Assembly: GCF_017163755.1 (NCBI RefSeq)
Contig: NZ_JAFIWC010000004.1
Location: 62,001 to 126,000, forward strand
Direction: 5' to 3'
Origin: Xanthomonas sp.
GTDB lineage: Bacteria > Pseudomonadota > Gammaproteobacteria > Xanthomonadales > Xanthomonadaceae
DNA length: 64,000 bases
Position 1 is the stretch's first letter; every line of letters starts with the position of its first letter. A program made the translations under genes and the position numbers. Of the stretch, positions 14,086-59,760 are shown one piece after another. The notes beneath the pieces are model-generated. The model ran no database searches. It was given only the letters and a program-made list of their open reading frames with translations, and was not told the origin of the DNA.

Positions 14086-15105
14086 ATGAGTGCCACTCCC
14101 GACGTCACCGACTCCCGCGCCGACCTGCGCCTGGCCTGGGCGCGCAGCGTGCTGGGCGACGCCGGCGCGACGCTGCACCGCGCCTCGGTCGACGCCGGCT
14201 TCCGCAGCTACTGGCGCAGCCAGGGCGGCGGCTCCAGCCGGATACTGATGGATTCGCCGCCGGACCTGGAGGACGTGCGCCCATGGCTGCGCATGCACGC
14301 GCTGTTGCGGCAAGGCGGCGTGCGCGTGCCGGCGATACTGGCCGCCGATCCGGACGCCGGCCTGCTGCTGCTCGAAGACCTGGGCGGCCCGACGCTGGCG
14401 CAGGTGCTCGACGACGCCTCGGCCGACGTTCACTTCGACGCGGCGCTGGGGCAATTGCTGCGGCTGCAGGCGATCGCGCCGCCGCCGGAGCTGGGCGTGT
14501 TCGGCGAGGCGCTGCTGCAACGCGACGCGGGGCTGTTCGAGGAATGGTTCCTGCGCCGGCATCTGGGCCTGCAGCTGGACTGCGCCGAACTGGACGCGCT
14601 GGAGCTGGTCCAGCGCCGGCTGATGGACAACGCGCTGGCGCAGCCGCGCGTGCTGGTGCATCGCGACTTCATGCCGCGCAACCTGATGCCGGTCGCCGAC
14701 GGCCCGGCGGTGCTGGATTTCCAGGACTGCGTGCTCGGGCCGGTGGCCTACGATCCGATCAGCCTGTTCAAGGACACCACGGTCAGCTGGCCGCTGGCGC
14801 GCGTGGACGCCTGGCTCGCCGGCTACCACGCGCGCGCCGCGCAGGCCGGGATACCGCTGCCGCCGTTGCCGCGCTTCCTGCGCGACGCGGACTGGATGGG
14901 CGTGCAGCGCCAGCTGAAGAACCTGGGCATCTTCTCGCGCCTGAACCACCGCGACGGCAAGGCCTGGTACATGGCCAACGTGCCGCGCTTCATCGGCTAC
15001 CTGGACGAGGTGCTGCCGCGCCATCCCGAACTGCAGCCGCTGGCGTGGCTGCTGGACGCGCGGATCAAGCCGGCCCTGGCGCAGCGCGCGGCGGCGCAGG
15101 CATGA
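14086..15105 (+). CDS. amgK: Anomeric N-acetylmuramate/N-acetylglucosamine kinase
   Basis: 339-aa APH-fold sugar kinase with catalytic LVHRDFMPRNLM and metal-binding LDFQDCVLGPVAYD. It phosphorylates the C1 of MurNAc in the cell-wall recycling shortcut that bypasses fosfomycin-sensitive de novo UDP-MurNAc synthesis. Its stop overlaps the start of the nucleotidyltransferase murU (ATGA), the canonical amgK-murU pair of Pseudomonas and xanthomonads. The ATG at 14086 follows a non-coding gap; the frame is open upstream but unsupported. Confidence 0.9.
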   Translation: MSATPDVTDSRADLRLAWARSVLGDAGATLHRASVDAGFRSYWRSQGGGSSRILMDSPPDLEDVRPWLRMHALLRQGGVRVPAILAADPDAGLLLLEDLGGPTLAQVLDDASADVHFDAALGQLLRLQAIAPPPELGVFGEALLQRDAGLFEEWFLRRHLGLQLDCAELDALELVQRRLMDNALAQPRVLVHRDFMPRNLMPVADGPAVLDFQDCVLGPVAYDPISLFKDTTVSWPLARVDAWLAGYHARAAQAGIPLPPLPRFLRDADWMGVQRQLKNLGIFSRLNHRDGKAWYMANVPRFIGYLDEVLPRHPELQPLAWLLDARIKPALAQRAAAQA

Positions 15106-15848
15106 AGGCGCTGATCTTCGCCGCCGGTTTCGGCGAACGCATGCGCCCGCTGACCGAACGCACGCCCAAGCCGCTGCTGGCGGTGGGCGGCACGCCGCTG
15201 ATCGTCTGGCACCTGCGCAAGCTGGCCGCGCTGGGCGTGCGCGAGGTGGTGATCAACACCTCGTGGCTGGCCGCGCAGTTCCCGCAGGCGCTCGGCGACG
15301 GCGCCGCGTTCGGCCTGCGCATCGCCTATTCGTACGAAGGCGCCACGCCGCTGGAAACCGGCGGCGGCATGCTGCACGCGCTGCCGCTGCTCGGCGACGA
15401 GGCGCCATTCCTGCTGGTCAACGGCGACATCTGGACCGACTTCGATTTCGCGCGGCTGTCGCCGGCGCCGGACGGCCTGGCGCAGCTGGCGATGGTCGAT
15501 CCGCCGGCCTACGCCAGCCACGGCGATTTCGCGCTGCACGCCGACGGCACGCTACGCAGCGACGGCGCGCCGCTGCTGACCTATGCCGGCATCGGCGTGT
15601 ACCGGCCGGCGCTGCTGCGCGACTGGCCGGCGGCGTTCGACGTGCCGCCCGCCGAGCACGGCACGCCGCCGCGTTTCGCGCTGGCGCCGATCCTGCGCGC
15701 GCGCATGGCCGACGGCCTGATCCGGGGCCTGCATCATCGCGGCCGCTGGACCGACGTCGGCACGCCGCAGCGGCTGGCGGAATTGGAAGGGGAGCTGGGG
15801 GGGGAGCCGGGACTCGGGACTCGGGACTCGGGACTCGGGAAAAGCTGA
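15102..15848 (+). CDS. murU: N-acetylmuramate-1-phosphate uridylyltransferase
   Basis: 248-aa nucleotidyltransferase. The N-terminal signature is AAGFGERMRPLTERTPKPLL, the Mg-binding site is LVNGDIWTDFDF, and GRWTDVGTPQRLAEL closes the core. It makes UDP-MurNAc from MurNAc-1-P made by AmgK. The last 12 residues, GLGTRDSGLGKS, are encoded by four GACTCGG heptads plus the flanking bases, so the natural C-terminus has been replaced or extended by an intergenic repeat. The convergent hda gene ends in the same peptide. Confidence 0.9.
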   Translation: MKALIFAAGFGERMRPLTERTPKPLLAVGGTPLIVWHLRKLAALGVREVVINTSWLAAQFPQALGDGAAFGLRIAYSYEGATPLETGGGMLHALPLLGDEAPFLLVNGDIWTDFDFARLSPAPDGLAQLAMVDPPAYASHGDFALHADGTLRSDGAPLLTYAGIGVYRPALLRDWPAAFDVPPAEHGTPPRFALAPILRARMADGLIRGLHHRGRWTDVGTPQRLAELEGELGGEPGLGTRDSGLGKS

Positions 15849-15975
15849 GCGTACAGGCGAAGCCATGCCGCGGCTGGGGGGCTTTTCCAGAACCGAATTC
15901 GATCGTCGACCTCGCGCTGACGTGAGCCCGATGGGATTCAGCTTTTGCCGAGTCCCGAGTCCCGAGTCCCGAGTC
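15811..15975. repeat. Inverted pair of GGGACTC heptad repeats spanning murU and hda 3' ends
   Basis: Four copies of GACTCGG (15811-15838) plus a ten-base tail ending at the murU stop codon face four copies of CCGAGTC (15948-15975) preceded by the hda stop. The 38-bp arms (15811-15848 and 15938-15975) differ at one base, with 89 bp between them. The arms would form a strong hairpin in both convergent transcripts. Confidence 0.85.
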
Positions 15976-16669
15976 CCGACCGTTCCAACACCCGCCGCAA
16001 GAAAGGCACCGTGACCCGCCGCTGCGCCGCCAGCGATTCGCGGTCCAGCCGTTCCAGCAGCGCGACCAGGCTGGCCAGGTCGCGCTCGGCGTGGGTCAGC
16101 AGCCAGTCGATCGCCGCGTCCTCCAGCACCAGGCCGCGGCGTTGCGCGCGCTCGCGCAGCACCGCCGCGCGGCCGGCATCGTCCAGCGGCGACAGCGCGA
16201 TGCGCGTGCACTGCGACAGCCGCGAGCGCAGGTCCGGCAGGCTCAGCGCCAGCCCGTCGGGCATCGCCTGCGCGGTGTACAGCACGGTGCCGCCGGCGCT
16301 GCGCGCGCGGTTGTGGAAATCGAACAGCGCCACCTCGTCCTCGCGCTGCCCGGCGATCGCCTCCAGGCCGTCGAGCGCGAGCACCTCGCGCCCTTCCAGC
16401 GCCTCGAGCGCATCGCGCAGACGCCCGGCGGCCGCGTGCAACGGCAGGTACGCCGAACTGCGTCCGGCCTGTTCGGCGGCCGCGCACAGCGCCAGCGCCA
16501 GGTGGGTCTTGCCGGTGCCGCCGGCACCGGCCAGGTACACCCAGTCGCGCGCCTGCCCGCTCGCCAGCGCCTGCAGCTGCGCCAGCAGCCCGTCCGGCGC
16601 GCCGACGTAGCGCTCCAGGCGCTGCTCCGGCGGATAGCGCAAGGCCAGCGGCAGCTGCGGCACGCTCAC
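15938..16669 (-). CDS. hda: DnaA regulatory inactivator Hda
   Basis: 243-aa AAA+ protein related to DnaA domain III, without the DnaA DNA-binding domain. Walker A is GAGGTGKTHLALA and a Walker-B-like region is EVLALDGLEAIAG. With the DNA clamp it stimulates DnaA-ATP hydrolysis after replication starts. The GTG start overlaps the perM stop (GTGA, 16666-16669), and no better start exists. An N-terminal PQLPLAL matches the clamp-binding region of Hda. The last 12 residues, GLGTRDSGLGKS, come from the heptad repeat and are identical to the MurU tail. Confidence 0.88.
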   Translation of the reverse strand: MSVPQLPLALRYPPEQRLERYVGAPDGLLAQLQALASGQARDWVYLAGAGGTGKTHLALALCAAAEQAGRSSAYLPLHAAAGRLRDALEALEGREVLALDGLEAIAGQREDEVALFDFHNRARSAGGTVLYTAQAMPDGLALSLPDLRSRLSQCTRIALSPLDDAGRAAVLRERAQRRGLVLEDAAIDWLLTHAERDLASLVALLERLDRESLAAQRRVTVPFLRRVLERSGLGTRDSGLGKS

Positions 16670-17829
16670 GCCGGATCGGAATCGCGCGGCGGCGATTCGA
16701 TCACCGAGCGATCGCTGGAATCGAGCAGGATCGCCGACGGCTCGCCGGCGTACAGCTCGCTCTGCTTGTAGCGTGCGTGCACGTAGTGCAACAGCACGTT
16801 GGCCACCGCCGCCACCGGCAGCGCCAGCAGCATGCCGAGGAAGCCGAACAGCTGGCCGCCGGCCATCACCGCGAAGATCACCGCCACCGGATGCAGGCCG
16901 ATCTTGTCGCCGACGATGCGCGGGGTCAGCACGTAGCTCTCCAGCAGCTGGCCGACGGTGAACACCACCCCGACCAGGATCATCAGCTGCAGGTCGAAGC
17001 CCTTGGCCTGCACCAGCGCGGCCAGGATCGCCAGCAGGATGCCGGTGGTCGCGCCCAGGTACGGGATGAAGCTGATCAGGCCGGCGACGATGCCGATCAG
17101 CAGGCCCAGCTTCAGCCCGACCAGCGACAGGCCGCCAGCGTAGATCACGCCCAGCGCCAGCATCACCAGGAACTGGCCGCGGATGAACGCGCCGAGCACG
17201 TCGTTGGACTGCTGCGCCAGGCGGCTGACGGTGCCGATGTGGTTGCGCGGGATGGTCGCGGCCACGCGCTCGACCAGCAGGTCCCAGTCGCGCAGGAAGT
17301 AGAACGTCAGGATCGGCAGCAGCACCAGGTTCACCACCCAGGTCACCATCGCGAAACCCGAGCGCGACAGGTAGCCGAAGAAGGTCGCCGCGACGCCGCC
17401 GGCCTGCTGCCAGTGGCCGCGGATCCAGTCGATCAGCCGCTCCGGGTCCAGCCAGGCCATCAGCTGCAGGCCGGTCTTCTGCTCGGCCCACGGGATCGCG
17501 GTGCTGATGAACCAGTCGCGCGCCTGCGGCAGCACGTCGATGAAGGTGACGATCTGCCGCTCGAGCATCGGCACCAGGATCACCAGCGCCAGGGTCAGCA
17601 GCAGCAGCATCAGCACGAACACCAGCGTCACCGCCATGTTGCGCGAGCGCCCGGCGCGTTCCAGCCGGTCGACCAGCGGGTCGCCGAGCCAGCCCAGCAG
17701 CAGCGCCAGCACGAACGGGGTCAGGATCGGCGCCAGCAGCCAGATCACCCACAACACGCCCAGGATCACCGCGGTGACCTTCAGCCGGCGCAGGAACAGC
17801 GCGATTTCCGCTTCCGGTGACAGCATCAT
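16666..17829 (-). CDS. perM: AI-2E family transporter / PerM-like permease
   Basis: 387-aa inner-membrane protein with about eight TM helices. They form an N-terminal pair (residues about 15-75), a central amphipathic segment (80-160) and a C-terminal helical bundle with GLISFIPYLGATTGILLAIL and FTVGQLLESYVLTPRIVG, the AI-2E/PerM signature. Substrate is unknown; the family name comes from TqsA. It overlaps the upstream DUF2066 gene by ATGA and the downstream hda gene by GTGA, so the three are translationally coupled. Confidence 0.88.
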   Translation of the reverse strand: MMLSPEAEIALFLRRLKVTAVILGVLWVIWLLAPILTPFVLALLLGWLGDPLVDRLERAGRSRNMAVTLVFVLMLLLLTLALVILVPMLERQIVTFIDVLPQARDWFISTAIPWAEQKTGLQLMAWLDPERLIDWIRGHWQQAGGVAATFFGYLSRSGFAMVTWVVNLVLLPILTFYFLRDWDLLVERVAATIPRNHIGTVSRLAQQSNDVLGAFIRGQFLVMLALGVIYAGGLSLVGLKLGLLIGIVAGLISFIPYLGATTGILLAILAALVQAKGFDLQLMILVGVVFTVGQLLESYVLTPRIVGDKIGLHPVAVIFAVMAGGQLFGFLGMLLALPVAAVANVLLHYVHARYKQSELYAGEPSAILLDSSDRSVIESPPRDSDPA

Positions 17830-33206: not shown

Positions 33207-33350
33207 CCGGGACCGGGGACCGGGGACCAGGGACCCGGAAAGCCAAAGCGACACTCGAGGCGGGTGATGCGGCAAGAGCGTCTCGGCGCCGCGATTGCTT
33301 GCGCTCGCGATCGGGTCCCCGGTCCCCGGTCCCTGGTCCCTGGTCCCCGC
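33207..33350. repeat. Inverted pair of GGGACCG/A heptad repeats after rapZ
   Basis: Left arm 33207-33239 is GGGACCG-type units on the plus strand. Right arm 33312-33350 is the complementary GGTCCCC/T units. The loop is about 72 bp. The pair fills most of the rapZ to PTS EIIA gap. Confidence 0.75.
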
Positions 33351-34112: not shown

Positions 34113-35819
34113 ATGCTGCGCATCGCCGGCCACGGCGCATCGCGCGGCAATGCGCTCGGCCGCGCCCGCGTGCGCCTGCCGCATGCGCTGGACGTGGCCG
34201 AGCAGCGCATCGACGCGGCGCAGGTCGCCGGGGAGCTGGAGCGGCTGCACCTGGCGGTGAACGCCGCGCGCGAGGAGATGCACGGCCTGCGCCAGCGCCT
34301 GCACGGCGCGCTGGCCAAGGAGGTCGGCGAGTTCCTCGACCTGCACGCGCTGCTGCTCGACGACCCGGAGCTGCTGCACGGCCTGGACGAATTGATCCGC
34401 ACCGGCCGCTACAGCGCCGACTACGCGCTGCGCCTGCAGCGCGACCGGCTGGCGACCGTGTTCGACGACATGGAAGACGCCTACCTGAAGAGCCGCATGG
34501 ACGACCTGGACCATGTGATCGGGCGCATCCATGCCTACCTGCAGAAGCGCCAGCCCGACAGCGCCGGCCTGGCCGGCGAGATCCTGGTGTGCGAGAACGT
34601 GGCCCCGTCGGAACTGGCGCAGTTGCAGGCGCAGGGCGTGGTCGGCATCGTCACCAGCGCCGGCAGCGCGCTGTCGCACAGCGCGATCCTGGCGCGCAGC
34701 CTGCACCTGCCGCTGGTGGTCGGCGTGGCCGACGCCCTGCAGAAGATCAACGACGGCGACGTGCTGATCGTCGACGGCGCGCAGGGCGCGGTGATCGTCG
34801 ACCCGACGCCGGACGATCTGCACGACTACCGCGCCCGCGTGCGCGACCTGGCCAAGGTGCAGCGCGGCCTGGGCCGGCTGCGCTCCAAGCCAAGCCGCAC
34901 CCGCGACGGGGTGGACATCACCCTGCTGGCCAACGCCGAGTCGCGCGAGGACATCGCCCGCGCGCATGCGATGGGCGCCGACGGCCTGGGCCTGTACCGC
35001 ACCGAGTTCCTGTTCCTGCAGCGCGACGCGCTGCCGGACGAGGAAGAGCAGTTCCGTACCTACCGCGACGCGGTGCTGGGCATGAGCGGACGCCCGGTGA
35101 CGATCCGCACGCTGGACCTGGGCGCGGACAAGGCCGACCGCACCGGCCTGACCCTGAGCAACGAACAGAATCCGGCGCTGGGCCTGCGCGGCGTGCGCCT
35201 GTCGCTGGCACGGCCGAAGGTCTCGGACACGCAGCTGCGCGCGATCCTGCGCGCCTCCGGCTACGGCCCGGTGCGGGTGCTGATCCCGATGGTCGGGCTG
35301 CGCGAGGAGATCATGGCGATGCGCCGCCACCTCAAGCGTATCGCCGCGCAGCTGCGCCGCGAGGGCCACGCCATCGCCGAACAGGTGCAGGTCGGCGCGA
35401 TGATCGAGGTGCCGGCCGCGGCGATCGCGCTGGACACCTTCATCGAGGACATCGATTTCCTGTCGATCGGCACCAACGACCTGGTGCAGTACCTGCTCGC
35501 GGTCGATCGCAACAACGAGGCGCTGGGCGAGCTGTATTCGCCGCTGCACCCGGCGGTGCTGCGGCTGATCGCGCAGGTGATCGCGCTCGGCCAGGCGCAC
35601 GGCAAGCCGGTGGCGGTTTGCGGCGAAATCGCCGGCGACCCGCTGCTGACCCCGCTGCTGCTGGCGCTGGGCCTGAGCGAGTTCAGCCTGCACCCGGCGA
35701 CGATGCTGGAAGTGCGCCGCGCGATCCGCGACACCGACCTGCAGGCGCTGCGCGCGCGCGGCGCGAAGCTGCTGCAGGCGCGCGATCGGAAGGGGATCGA
35801 GCGCTGGTTGGCTGGTTGA
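34113..35819 (+). CDS. ptsI: Phosphoenolpyruvate-protein phosphotransferase (Enzyme I)
   Basis: 568 aa. HPr-binding N-domain, active His in SAGSALSHSAILARS, PEP-binding LGLYRTEFLFL and C-terminal AVCGEIAGDPL with the catalytic Cys. No GAF domain, so PtsI rather than PtsP. The start may be the ATG at 34113 or GTG at 34107; the upstream TTG-started extension is unlikely. With HPr and two EIIA proteins but no permease, this is a signalling phosphorelay. Confidence 0.92.
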   Translation: MLRIAGHGASRGNALGRARVRLPHALDVAEQRIDAAQVAGELERLHLAVNAAREEMHGLRQRLHGALAKEVGEFLDLHALLLDDPELLHGLDELIRTGRYSADYALRLQRDRLATVFDDMEDAYLKSRMDDLDHVIGRIHAYLQKRQPDSAGLAGEILVCENVAPSELAQLQAQGVVGIVTSAGSALSHSAILARSLHLPLVVGVADALQKINDGDVLIVDGAQGAVIVDPTPDDLHDYRARVRDLAKVQRGLGRLRSKPSRTRDGVDITLLANAESREDIARAHAMGADGLGLYRTEFLFLQRDALPDEEEQFRTYRDAVLGMSGRPVTIRTLDLGADKADRTGLTLSNEQNPALGLRGVRLSLARPKVSDTQLRAILRASGYGPVRVLIPMVGLREEIMAMRRHLKRIAAQLRREGHAIAEQVQVGAMIEVPAAAIALDTFIEDIDFLSIGTNDLVQYLLAVDRNNEALGELYSPLHPAVLRLIAQVIALGQAHGKPVAVCGEIAGDPLLTPLLLALGLSEFSLHPATMLEVRRAIRDTDLQALRARGAKLLQARDRKGIERWLAG

Positions 35820-35820
35820 G

Positions 35821-36015
35821 CCGGGACCGGGGGACCGGGGACCAGGGACCCGGGGGCTTGATCGCGAGTGCGTGCGTCCTCTGCACTACGACACTATCTC
35901 CGTCATCCACGCGCGCCGCACTGCCAAACGAAACGCCGGTCGCCCAACGCGATCGGCAACTCCGTTTTTGCTTTTGCTCTTCCGGGTCCCCGGTCCCTGG
36001 TCCCCAGTCCCGGCT
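35821..36015. repeat. Inverted pair of GGGACCG/A heptads between ptsI and mgtE
   Basis: Left arm 35821-35854 begins one base after the ptsI stop; right arm 35982-36015 is the complementary GGTCCC form. About 127 bp lie between them. No gene is supported in this 301-bp gap. Confidence 0.75.
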
Positions 36016-56809: not shown

Positions 56810-56963
56810 CCGGGACCGGGGACCGGGGACCGGGGACCGGGATCAGCCACCGCTGACTCCGTTCCCGTTGTCCCAGGCCGTGCGCGGCCCACTCATGTGG
56901 AAAATCACGTAGCGTCGCTGTTGTTCTTCCCGGGTCCCCGGTCCCTGGTCCCCGGTCCCGGCT
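56810..56963. repeat. Inverted pair of GGGACCG heptads between pilT and pilU
   Basis: Left arm 56810-56843 (GGGACCG units) and right arm 56930-56963 (GGTCCC units) fill nearly the whole pilT-pilU gap; the right arm ends directly at the pilT stop codon. They may act as a terminator or mRNA-stability block between the two ATPase genes. Confidence 0.8.
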
Positions 56964-58087: not shown

Positions 58088-58795
58088 GTGACGCTCTCTC
58101 CGCTGCAACAGATCCGCCTGGACATGGACCGCGCCGCCAGCGCCGCCGGGCGCGCGCCGGCGCAGTTGCTGGCCGTGTCCAAGACCCAGCCGGCGGCGGC
58201 GATCGCCGCGCTGGCCGCGCAGGGGCAGCGCGCGTTCGGCGAGAACTACGTGCAGGAGGCGGCGCCGAAGATCGCCGAACTGGCGGCATTGGGACTGCAA
58301 TGGCATCTGATCGGCCACCTGCAGTCGAACAAGGCCGAGGCGGCGGCGAACCTGTTCGACTGGGTGCAGACCGTGGACCGGCCCAAGCTGGTCGCCGCGC
58401 TGGCGCGCCACCGCGCGCCGCCGCGCCCGCCGCTGAACGTGTTGATCCAAGTGAACATCGACGACGAGGCCAGCAAGCACGGCTGCGCGCCGCAGGACGT
58501 GGACGCGCTGGCCGCGGCCGTCGCCGCGCAGCCGGCGCTGAAGCTGCGCGGGCTGATGGCGATCCCGGCGCCGTTCCCGGACCCGGCGCTTCGCCGCGCC
58601 GCGTTCCAGCGCATGCGCGCACTGCTGGAGCGCCTGGCCGCGCAGCATCCCGGCGCCGACACCCTGTCGATGGGCATGAGCGGAGACTTCGCCGCGGCCA
58701 TCGCCGAGGGCGCGACGATGGTGCGGATCGGTACGGCGTTGTTCGGAAGCCGCGATGCGGCCGGGACTCGGGACTCGGGACTCGGGACTCGGTAA
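58088..58795 (+). CDS. yggS: PLP homeostasis protein YggS
   Basis: 235-aa alanine-racemase-fold PLP-binding protein with Lys32 in VSKTQP, GENYVQEA and HLIGHLQSNK. GTG start at 58088. The last ~10 residues, GTRDSGLGTR, are encoded by GACTCGG repeats (58765-58792) and are not part of the normal fold. Confidence 0.92.
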   Translation: MTLSPLQQIRLDMDRAASAAGRAPAQLLAVSKTQPAAAIAALAAQGQRAFGENYVQEAAPKIAELAALGLQWHLIGHLQSNKAEAAANLFDWVQTVDRPKLVAALARHRAPPRPPLNVLIQVNIDDEASKHGCAPQDVDALAAAVAAQPALKLRGLMAIPAPFPDPALRRAAFQRMRALLERLAAQHPGADTLSMGMSGDFAAAIAEGATMVRIGTALFGSRDAAGTRDSGLGTR

Positions 58796-58942
58796 AAGCG
58801 GGCCTGGGCGTCCGCGACCTGCACAGTTGCTATCTTTACACTTTCCTTCCCCCGCAACGGCCGACCGCCATGACCTCTCCGAGTCCCGAGTCCCGAGTCC
58901 CGAGTCCCGGCCCTCCGAGTCCCGAGTCCCCAGTCCCGAGTC
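58765..58942. repeat. GGGACTC heptad pair inside yggS 3' end and proC 5' end
   Basis: Four GACTCGG units (58765-58792) lie in yggS; two blocks of four CCGAGTC units (58879-58906; 58915-58942, one variant) lie in the proC 5' coding sequence. The two arms face each other across the intergenic gap and are translated at both ends. Confidence 0.85.
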
Positions 58943-59760
58943 CCGGCCTTGCGATCGCCTTCATCGGCGGCGGCAACATGGCGCGCAGCCTGATCGCCGG
59001 GCTGGTCGCCAAGGGCACGCCGCCGGCGTCGATCCGCGTCGCCGAGCCGGTGCCGGCGCTGCGCGAGGCGCTGCAGGCCGAGTACGGCATCAGCGCGTTC
59101 GCCGAGGCGGCGCATGCGGCCCAGGGCGCGGCGGTGTGGGTGTTCGCGGTCAAGCCGCAGGTGATGCGCAGCGTCTGCGCCGACCTGGGCGCGCTGGCGC
59201 AGGCGCGGCCGCCGCTGGTGCTGTCGATCGCCGCCGGCATCACCGTGCCGCAGCTGGACCGCTGGCTCGGCGGGAACTGCGCGGTGATCCGGGCGATGCC
59301 CAACACCCCGGCGCTGCTCGGCGCCGGCGTCACCGGCCTGTTCGCCAGCGCCGGCGCCAGCGCCGCGCAACGCGCCCAGGCCGAGCAGCTGCTGGCCGCC
59401 GCCGGCCGCACCGTCTGGGTCGACGACGAGGGCCTGATCGACGCGGTCACCGCCGTGTCCGGCAGCGGCCCGGCCTACGTGTTCCTGCTCGCCGAGGCGA
59501 TGGAGGCGGCCGGCATCGTCCAGGGCCTGCCCGCCGACACCGCGCGCACCCTGGTGCTGCAGACCGTGCTCGGCGCGGCGCGCATGCTCACCGAGGCCGG
59601 CGAGGCGCCGGCCGAACTGCGCCGCCGGGTGACCTCGCCCAACGGCACCACCCAGGCGGCGATCGAGACCTTCCAGGCGGGAGGCTTCGAAGCGCTGACC
59701 GCGCGCGCCGTCGCCGCGGCGGCGCAGCGCGGCCGCGAACTGTCCGCCGCCAACGACTGA
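58870..59760 (+). CDS. proC: Pyrroline-5-carboxylate reductase
   Basis: 296 aa, about 25 longer than the usual ProC. The first ~26 residues (MTSPSPESRVPSPG and on) are heptad-encoded Ser/Pro/Glu. Then AIAFIGGGNMARSL begins the Rossmann fold, followed by SGSGPAYVFLLAEAME and the C-terminal dimer motif. The next in-frame ATG would cut the fold, so the repeat is very likely translated. Confidence 0.92.
   Translation: MTSPSPESRVPSPGPPSPESPVPSPGLAIAFIGGGNMARSLIAGLVAKGTPPASIRVAEPVPALREALQAEYGISAFAEAAHAAQGAAVWVFAVKPQVMRSVCADLGALAQARPPLVLSIAAGITVPQLDRWLGGNCAVIRAMPNTPALLGAGVTGLFASAGASAAQRAQAEQLLAAAGRTVWVDDEGLIDAVTAVSGSGPAYVFLLAEAMEAAGIVQGLPADTARTLVLQTVLGAARMLTEAGEAPAELRRRVTSPNGTTQAAIETFQAGGFEALTARAVAAAAQRGRELSAAND

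What the first reader, a model, noticed from the sequence alone, without database searches (positions are those of the whole stretch)
15811..15975. Convergent murU and hda end in the same repeat-encoded peptide
A 38-bp inverted repeat made of four GACTCGG units plus ten bases ends exactly at the stop codons of both convergent genes. As a result two unrelated enzymes both finish with GLGTRDSGLGKS. The repeat seems to have invaded or grown into both 3' ends while keeping the frames open. A shared DNA hairpin thus becomes a shared protein tail, which I cannot recall being described.
Basis: partly seen in the sequence, partly recalled or inferred. Interest (0 to 1): 0.75.

Follow-up and report, generated by a model that had tools for sequence, protein, structure and literature searches.

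The report
Invertible repeat gives two enzymes tails
In a Xanthomonas-like bacterium, two neighbouring unrelated enzymes end in the same peptide because the DNA between their genes is bracketed by mirror-image repeats that run into both genes; in relatives this DNA lies either way round, and the two tails change together or even trade places.

Summary
Confirmed: arms 15808-15848 and 15938-15978 are 98% complementary, end at the murU and hda stop codons, and encode GLGTRDSGLGKS in both. The DNA repeat is known in kind: facing G-rich heptamer arrays, common in Xanthomonas (Rehm 2015, PMC4692102) and in this genome. Open frames are no feat: GGGACTC arrays have no stop in six frames and give one cyclic heptapeptide in every sense frame. 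What seems new is the evolution. Both tails occur in 17 of 19 readable same-genus genomes; residues change wholesale but together, because both arms change heptamer together (15 genomes, 0 of 5000 permutations as high). Spacers between the arms lie in opposite orientations in different species (15 inverted, 23 forward, 193 unrecognisable of 231 comparisons), against 0 inverted, 842 forward, 179 unrecognisable of 1021 in 33 control regions. In two species pairs the arms, hence the tails, have traded places between Hda and MurU. Best reading: a recombining inverted cassette whose matched edges carry both stop codons. Function of the tails, and flipping within a population, are untested.

The parts
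15102..15848 (+). murU (N-acetylmuramate alpha-1-phosphate uridylyltransferase), 248 aa; residues after 229 lie beyond the family model
15808..15848 (+). left arm: heptamer array (GGGACTC)4 plus GGGAAAAGCTGA, whose TGA is the murU stop
15810..15845 (+). codons of the MurU tail GLGTRDSGLGKS
15849..15937 (.). 89-nt spacer; its recognisable homologues lie in either orientation in other species
15938..15978 (-). right arm: (GGGACTC)4 plus GGCAAAAGCTGA on the minus strand, whose TGA is the hda stop
15941..15976 (-). codons of the Hda tail GLGTRDSGLGKS
15938..16669 (-). hda (DnaA regulatory inactivator), 243 aa with the start chosen by a codon-usage script; residues after 229 lie beyond the family model
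58763..58945 (.). second arm pair of the same kind in the window, translated at the yggS 3' end and in the open frame at the proC 5' end (gene names recalled)
33209..33347 (.). arm pair downstream of rapZ (name recalled), GGGACCG/GGGACCA units, non-coding; comparison locus
35831..36011 (.). arm pair downstream of the gene ending at 35819, GGGACCG/GGGACCA units, non-coding
56812..56959 (.). arm pair between pilT and pilU (names recalled), non-coding; comparison locus

Best explanation
The murU/hda junction holds one member of the Xanthomonas family of paired, inward-facing G-rich heptamer arrays. Many such arrays start a few bases outside a gene; here both lie inside the two 3' ends, where relatives without arms have their stop codons, so both proteins are translated through the array and take their stop from its inner edge (GGNAAAAGCTGA). 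Because the arms are mirror images in the same phase and carry the same edge, the segment can recombine with itself without breaking either gene: crossing over, or template switching in the hairpin, between the arms flips the spacer, lets one arm overwrite the other, or exchanges arms. The two C-termini therefore evolve in concert and have sometimes been traded between Hda and MurU. Shown: arms, frames, co-change across species, opposite spacer orientations, two exchanges of arms. Inferred: that recombination or strand switching between the arms is the process, that the tails are tolerated rather than useful, and that the hairpin helps end or protect both mRNAs.
For: Arms and tails. Family in this genome: 65 arrays in an 864-kb sample; 22 facing neighbours within 400 nt, 0 back-to-back, 1 same-strand; arms of one pair share heptamers more than shuffled pairs (0.696 against 0.365; 0 of 5000; nearest other pair 0.377). 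Between species, both arms of a locus agree within a species: hda/murU 15 genomes 0.607 against 0.270 (0 of 5000), rapZ 11 genomes 0.602 against 0.249 (0 of 5000), pilT 9 genomes 0.685 against 0.329 (10 of 5000). As a hairpin (13 distinct sequences), 11 of 38 pairs changed on both sides (21 of 500 shuffles as high), covariation score 0.181 (0 of 500 as high), 89.7% of cells paired against at most 63.0% for slid versions. Spacer orientation at hda/murU: 15 inverted, 23 forward, 193 unrecognisable of 231 comparisons of 22 records, with no inconsistent call; G008 against G010 scores 254 inverted, 27 forward, 27 for the best shuffle. Control without arms: 842 forward, 0 inverted, 179 unrecognisable of 1021; arm-flanked spacers by the same rule 18, 13, 64 of 95. 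At least 3 orientation changes among ten genomes on the gene tree, plus one between G003 and G019. Exchange: G009 against G011, whole segment 0.89 identical inverted, 0.68 straight; arms 0.96 and 0.84 swapped, 0.68 and 0.65 straight; G003 against G019, odd edges with their stop codons swapped, spacer inverted. In-place change of both arms with a recognisable spacer: G007 (GGGACTC) against G013 (mostly GGGATTC).
Against: Most spacers are too diverged to judge: 193 of 231, 64 of 95, 243 of 319. In another set of regions, 16 edges between arm pairs gave 0 inverted, 2 forward (one of these between two neighbouring pairs of the same genome), 11 unrecognisable, 3 too short. Spacer and heptamer type tend to travel together: 58 of 122 same-type comparisons have recognisable spacers, 18 of 197 different-type ones, so replacement of the whole segment by recombination in flanking genes can explain part of the concordance. 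Arm concordance was not significant in two other genomes with few pairs (strict arrays: G012 3 pairs, 3286 of 5000; G019 5 pairs, 3201 of 5000; looser arrays: 4 pairs, 411; 8 pairs, 106) nor at proC (2 genomes). The hairpin count of further pair types was not above shuffles (174 of 500). Arms are discordant in G009, G011 and partly G001. Species comparisons are not independent: few events, related genomes; the named records F10 and X. bonasiae look the same as G019 and G015 (without them one search gives 14 inverted and 18 forward of 190). The three changes rest on a tree with weak forks; well-supported branches alone force two. At rapZ the spacers that gave inverted calls are only 36-38 nt. 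No population data.
Confidence: 0.78

Rival explanations
1. Selection on a paired RNA: the arms form a bidirectional terminator or mRNA 3'-end hairpin, and the two arms co-change by compensatory mutation; the tails are by-products. (It may act together with the best explanation, so the odds overlap.)
For: Very stable predicted hairpin, -126.7 kcal/mol, z -10.3 on one strand and -120.7, z -9.7 on the other; 11 of 38 pairs with changes on both sides; Rehm et al. report that transcripts start or stop more often at the quadruplex-forming repeats than at control repeats (section 15 of PMC4692102).
Against: No terminator-like site found in 15000-17000; 89 nt separate the arms. It does not explain inverted spacers or exchange of whole arms.
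Confidence: 0.35
2. Whole-segment replacement: different heptamer types are alleles moved between species by homologous recombination in the flanking murU and hda genes, so both arms arrive together; little happens within a locus. (Not exclusive of the best explanation.)
For: Recognisable spacers in 58 of 122 same-type but 18 of 197 different-type comparisons; G011 has one arm of each type, as expected of a recombinant.
Against: Does not by itself turn a spacer round between collinear genes; the G007/G013 comparison at hda and, more weakly, G003/G006 at pilT keep a recognisable spacer while both arms differ.
Confidence: 0.35
3. A site-specific invertible element (inverton) with a dedicated recombinase, used for regulated switching.
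For: Inverted repeats flank a short segment found in both orientations in different species.
Against: Arm sequence differs from species to species and locus to locus, unlike a fixed recombinase site; presence of a recombinase was not tested.
Confidence: 0.07
4. Coincidence of independent slippage: each gene end grew its own heptamer array.
For: Heptamer arrays are abundant, and by my reading 7 of 65 arrays in the sample encode a C-terminal tail.
Against: The array with edge AAAAGCTGA has 5 matches within 2 mismatches in the 5.07-Mb genome, and the two closest (0 and 1 mismatch) are these two arms; arms co-change across species.
Confidence: 0.04

Closest known systems
G-rich GGGNATC heptamer repeats of Xanthomonas (Rehm et al. 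2015, PMC4692102; abstract, introduction, sections 10 and 13-16, and passages read)
   Same: Heptamer with GGGA, about four units preferred, dispersed, often as two convergent arrays on opposite strands (70 and 75 cases in the two genomes studied), close to or overlapping stop codons, intergenic rather than intragenic
   Different: Here the unit is GGGACTC. The paper's main text has no occurrence of 'C-terminal', 'peptide', 'amino acid', 'inversion' or 'gene conversion'. Shared tails, co-change of arms and opposite spacer orientations are additions of this work.
Shufflons and phase-variable hsdS or inverton systems (recalled; papers seen as a search listing only)
   Same: Inversion between inverted repeats exchanges the 3' ends of reading frames
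   Different: Here two unrelated convergent housekeeping genes share the inverted segment, the repeat sequence itself turns over, and no recombinase was looked for
Rickettsia palindromic elements (recalled; no paper on them read)
   Same: A dispersed DNA repeat becomes coding sequence inside unrelated proteins
   Different: Here the repeat is a tandem array at the C-terminus, paired across two genes and evolving in concert

Membership tests
Xanthomonas GGGNATC heptamer repeats (Rehm 2015) | tandem GGG-starting heptamers, at least two units | tested here: met
Xanthomonas GGGNATC heptamer repeats (Rehm 2015) | at least one GGGAATC unit (the paper's inclusion rule) | tested here: not met
   window arms hold GGGACTC and one GGGAGCC only; orthologous arms in G006, G012 and others hold GGGAATC. 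By the paper's rule a variant, not a member
Xanthomonas GGGNATC heptamer repeats (Rehm 2015) | convergent pair close to stop codons | tested here: met
Xanthomonas GGGNATC heptamer repeats (Rehm 2015) | forms a G-quadruplex in vitro | not testable with these tools
   no measurement possible
Intrinsic (rho-independent) terminator | short-loop GC hairpin followed by a T run | tested here: not met
   0 sites in 15000-17000; arms 89 nt apart
Inverton (phase-variable invertible DNA) | segment flanked by inverted repeats | tested here: met
Inverton (phase-variable invertible DNA) | both orientations within one population | not testable with these tools
   one assembled genome per species; between species both orientations occur
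Inverton (phase-variable invertible DNA) | dedicated recombinase | not tested
   no search made
Rfam RNA families | match at the curated score | tested here: not met
   0 matches in the window
Rickettsia palindromic elements | in-frame palindromic insertion in unrelated genes | not tested
   recalled only

The most novel reading that the evidence does not exclude
Of the order of a hundred intergenic regions per genome in Xanthomonas (22 facing pairs in 864 kb here) are bracketed by heptamer arms that act as recombinase-free inversion and conversion cassettes; wherever the arms overlap gene ends, unrelated proteins share, co-evolve and trade termini, so that DNA-level homogenisation drives parallel protein change in genes with no functional link.
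Probability: 0.5. Interest if true: 0.75.

Novelty: new variant of a known kind. Interest (0 to 1): 0.62.

Why it matters
It is a clear natural case in which identical peptides in two unrelated proteins say nothing about common ancestry or function of the proteins: they come from a DNA inverted repeat. It also turns a descriptive repeat family of unknown role into a testable system, because co-change of arms, spacer flipping and tail exchange make predictions for population sequencing, proteomics and simple reporter assays. For annotators, terminal stretches such as GLGTRDSGLG or SPESRVPS in this genus are likely repeat-derived, not domains.

Tried and rejected
Chance and low complexity: rejected. 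Canonical terminator and known RNA families: nothing found. A mobile element with a conserved interior: whose output was cut, spacers of ordinary pairs showed, by my reading, mainly matches to the opposite arm; only a composite class (six sites in the sample) shares its interior. Strain-specific tail: rejected, 17 of 19 readable genomes. Independent growth of two arrays: disfavoured. Arm concordance inside two further genomes: too few pairs, not significant. Ortholog comparison in other regions: 16 edges, 2 forward (one within a single genome), 0 inverted, 11 unrecognisable, 3 too short. A first, simpler control (window against each other genome) gave 147 forward, 0 inverted, 58 unrecognisable without arms, and 23, 3, 14 for whole intergenic regions with arms. 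The tRNA-like stretch in some spacers is not a tRNA gene by ARAGORN (5 loci). Literature: ten searches listed no paper whose title or abstract start reports shared tails or inversion of these spacers; of the papers listed only Rehm 2015 was opened, and the library lacks most subscription journals, so this is weak evidence of novelty. Results that did not fit: discordant arms in G009, G011 and G001 (the first two read as inversion of one mixed segment), and unrecognisable spacers in most comparisons.

Full report
Observation. The window holds two convergent genes, murU (15102-15848, plus) and hda (15938-16669, minus). Their last 41 bases are mirror images with one mismatch, separated by 89 nt. 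Each arm is four GGGACTC heptamers followed by GG(G/C)AAAAGCTGA, and the TGA is the stop codon of the gene. Both proteins end GLGTRDSGLGKS. NCBIfam identifies the proteins as MurU and Hda, and both family matches end at residue 229, before the tails.

Why the frames are open. A heptamer array has three sense frames that read the same cyclic heptapeptide in different phase, because 7 and 3 share no factor. Nine of eleven heptamers tested, GGGACTC among them, have no stop codon in any of six frames; GGGATTA and GGGAATA do. So no selection is needed to keep the array open. The identical end GKS comes from the shared edge AAAAGCTGA. In the 5.07-Mb genome the array with this edge has 5 matches within two mismatches, and the closest two are these two arms. 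The shared end thus reflects kinship of the two arms, not a genome-wide rule.

The repeat family. A 25-base heptamer pattern with up to two mismatches has 257 plus and 242 minus overlapping matches in the genome, and none for the reversed control. In a sample of 864,000 bases (the window plus 800 kb of four contigs), 65 arrays with at least four GGG were found (64 of the GGGA kind) and none after shuffling; neighbours within 400 nt were 22 facing, 0 back-to-back, 1 same-strand. Looser definitions gave 32 facing, 0 back-to-back and 6 same-strand in regions orthologous to the window, and 60 facing, 1 back-to-back and 7 same-strand in other samples. The consensus is roughly GCC-(GGGACTC)n-GGNAAAAGC. 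This is the class described by Rehm et al. 2015 (PMC4692102; abstract, introduction, sections 10 and 13-16, and passages read), who reported 70 and 75 convergent pairs in two Xanthomonas genomes and a preference for places near or overlapping stop codons. By their inclusion rule (at least one GGGAATC unit) the window arms would not be counted, but orthologous arms in other genomes would.

Relatives. Of 80 named loci fetched with Hda, X. codiaei, X. melonis, X. maliensis, X. bonasiae and Xanthomonas sp. F10 have tails on both proteins, each spelled by the heptamers at that locus; X. euvesicatoria, X. axonopodis and X. floridensis show short remnants on one or both; the other Xanthomonas loci whose ends could be read, and the Stenotrophomonas, Pseudoxanthomonas and Lysobacter ones, show no such tail by my reading of the printed ends, though a Lysobacter locus (L103) has a GGGAAAC array beyond its hda stop. 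In 8 of the 80 loci murU was not found by the search. In the 20 same-genus genomes held by the search tool, one (G005) is cut at the contig end; of the other 19, 17 have array-encoded tails on both Hda and MurU, and two (G002, G016) have none. The Hda tails include GLGTRDSGLGKS, GMGSGESGMGKS, GLGIGDSGFGKS and GPGTGDRGPGKS; in G017 MurU reads on past the array edge. The array starts 40 nt before the end of hda in 15 of the 16 genomes with a plus-strand array call, and 61 nt before it in G014, which has three more units, 21 nt, and so keeps the frame. Genomes favour different heptamers: overlapping matches to exact triplets, both strands added, are 322 for GGGACTC in the window's genome and 252 in G007, 51 for GGGAATC in G006, 46 for GGGACCC in G019.

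The two arms change together. In the window's genome, arms of one pair share their units more than shuffled pairs (22 pairs, 0.696 against 0.365, 0 of 5000; nearest other pair 0.377), although several heptamer types coexist. Across species at one locus, permuting the right arms among species lowers the similarity from 0.607 to 0.270 at hda/murU (15 genomes, 0 of 5000), from 0.602 to 0.249 at rapZ (11 genomes, 0 of 5000) and from 0.685 to 0.329 at pilT (9 genomes, 10 of 5000); at proC only 2 genomes could be used (2532 of 5000) (gene names other than murU and hda are recalled). Written as one hairpin, 13 distinct sequences give 89.7% paired cells and 11 of 38 pairs changed on both sides, against at most 63.0% and 6 when the partner is slid by one to three columns; against shuffles, the covariation score and paired cells are reached by 0 of 500, the 11 pairs by 21 of 500, and the number of further pair types by 174 of 500. 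The test inside single other genomes was not significant (G012: 3 pairs, 3286 of 5000; G019: 5 pairs, 3201 of 5000; with looser arrays 4 pairs, 411, and 8 pairs, 106). These tests do not remove relatedness of the species.

The segment flips. Comparing the hda/murU spacers of 22 records (17 genomes of the set and 5 named records, of which F10 and X. bonasiae look the same as G019 and G015), 38 of 231 comparisons are recognisable: 23 forward and 15 inverted, with no inconsistency around any cycle; without the two doubles, 18 and 14 of 190. G008 and G010 are the clearest: score 254 inverted, 27 forward, 27 for the best shuffle; the alignment runs from AAAAGCTGA at one end to TCAGCTTTT at the other, so in the other orientation each gene takes the stop codon that its neighbour had. 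On a tree of four genes this needs at least three changes among ten genomes, of which well-supported branches alone force two, plus one between G003 and G019; the orientation is not clustered on the tree (500 of 500 shuffles as low). Inverted spacers were also called at rapZ, where those spacers are short, and weakly at pilT. As a control, 33 intergenic regions (40-500 nt) that have no arm pair in the window were compared among the window and orthologous regions of up to ten other genomes: 842 forward, 0 inverted and 179 unrecognisable of 1021 comparisons; arm-flanked spacers scored by the same rule gave 18, 13 and 64 of 95. The comparisons are many views of few events. In other sampled regions no inversion was seen (16 edges: 2 forward, 11 unrecognisable, 3 too short).

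Tails have traded places. In G011 the hda arm is of the GGGAATG type and the murU arm of the GGGATTC type; in G009 the hda arm is of the GGGATTG/GGGATTC type and the murU arm of the GGGAATC type. The whole arm-spacer-arm segment of G009 is 0.89 identical to the inverted G011 segment and 0.68 to the straight one; arms match 0.96 and 0.84 when swapped, 0.68 and 0.65 when not. G003 and G019 show the same with two unusual edges that carry different stop codons (spacer inverted). So the Hda tail of one species corresponds to the MurU tail of another.

Mechanism. I commit to recombination or strand switching between the two arms as the process, at about 0.78, because among the readings considered it alone accounts for inversion, exchange and homogenisation. 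Steps shown: arms, phase, co-change, opposite orientations, exchange. Steps inferred: the enzymology, the direction of each change, and that tails are tolerated passengers. Whole-segment replacement between species probably contributes: with a slightly looser rule, recognisable spacers are found in 58 of 122 comparisons of the same heptamer type but 18 of 197 of different type. But G007 and G013, which group together on the tree (support 94/94), keep a recognisable spacer while both arms differ (GGGACTC against mostly GGGATTC), which looks like in-place change of both arms. A role of the hairpin in ending transcripts is plausible (predicted -126.7 kcal/mol, z -10.3) but no terminator-like site was found.

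Known and new. The repeat class is known. In the ten searches made (open-access library, listings only except Rehm 2015) I saw no report of shared tails, co-changing arms, or inversion of these spacers; the Rehm main text has no occurrence of 'inversion', 'gene conversion', 'peptide', 'amino acid' or 'C-terminal'. I therefore file it as a new variant of a known kind.

Noticed in passing
window 58763-58948: A second arm pair is translated on both sides: yggS (name recalled) ends GTRDSGLGTR with a stop at the array edge, and the open frame of proC (name recalled) begins MTSPSPESRVPSPGPPSPESPVPSPG, the antisense reading of the arms. Similar stretches before ProC are open in G007, G009 and G013, so in 4 of 20 genomes.
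   Followed up: partly
L114:17092-17394 (G000 C11:77092-77394), also C11:7, 87347, 255992, C1:88964, C5:224: A composite class of heptamer arrays, some long, with a shared interior; in L114 the interior holds two inner hairpins, one around a run of T and A.
   Followed up: partly
L225, L222, L226, L220, downstream of the hda stop: The hda/murU spacer of G008, G010, G012 and G018 holds a stretch resembling a tRNA 3' end (GGTTCAAATCCTGCCCCCGCTACCA in G010); ARAGORN finds no tRNA gene in these loci.
   Followed up: partly
G034 C1, from 326879: A very long pure GGGAATC array in a same-family genome: 204 overlapping reverse-strand matches in the genome, and the listed ones all lie in this array.
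   Followed up: no
G057 (same order): The reversed, not complemented, control patterns match here (2 and 8, 5 and 13), so another heptamer array family may exist in this genome.
   Followed up: no
L079 (JAHREJ010000005.1): A record titled Bacillus subtilis encodes an Hda like those of Stenotrophomonas, probably contamination or mislabelling.
   Followed up: no
window 56812-56959: Arm pair between pilT and pilU (names recalled); the arm next to pilT starts 2-4 nt after its stop in the genomes where it was called.
   Followed up: partly
G000 C1:135225: A GGGATTA-type array supplies a stop codon (TAG) to the gene that runs into it, a few residues in.
   Followed up: no
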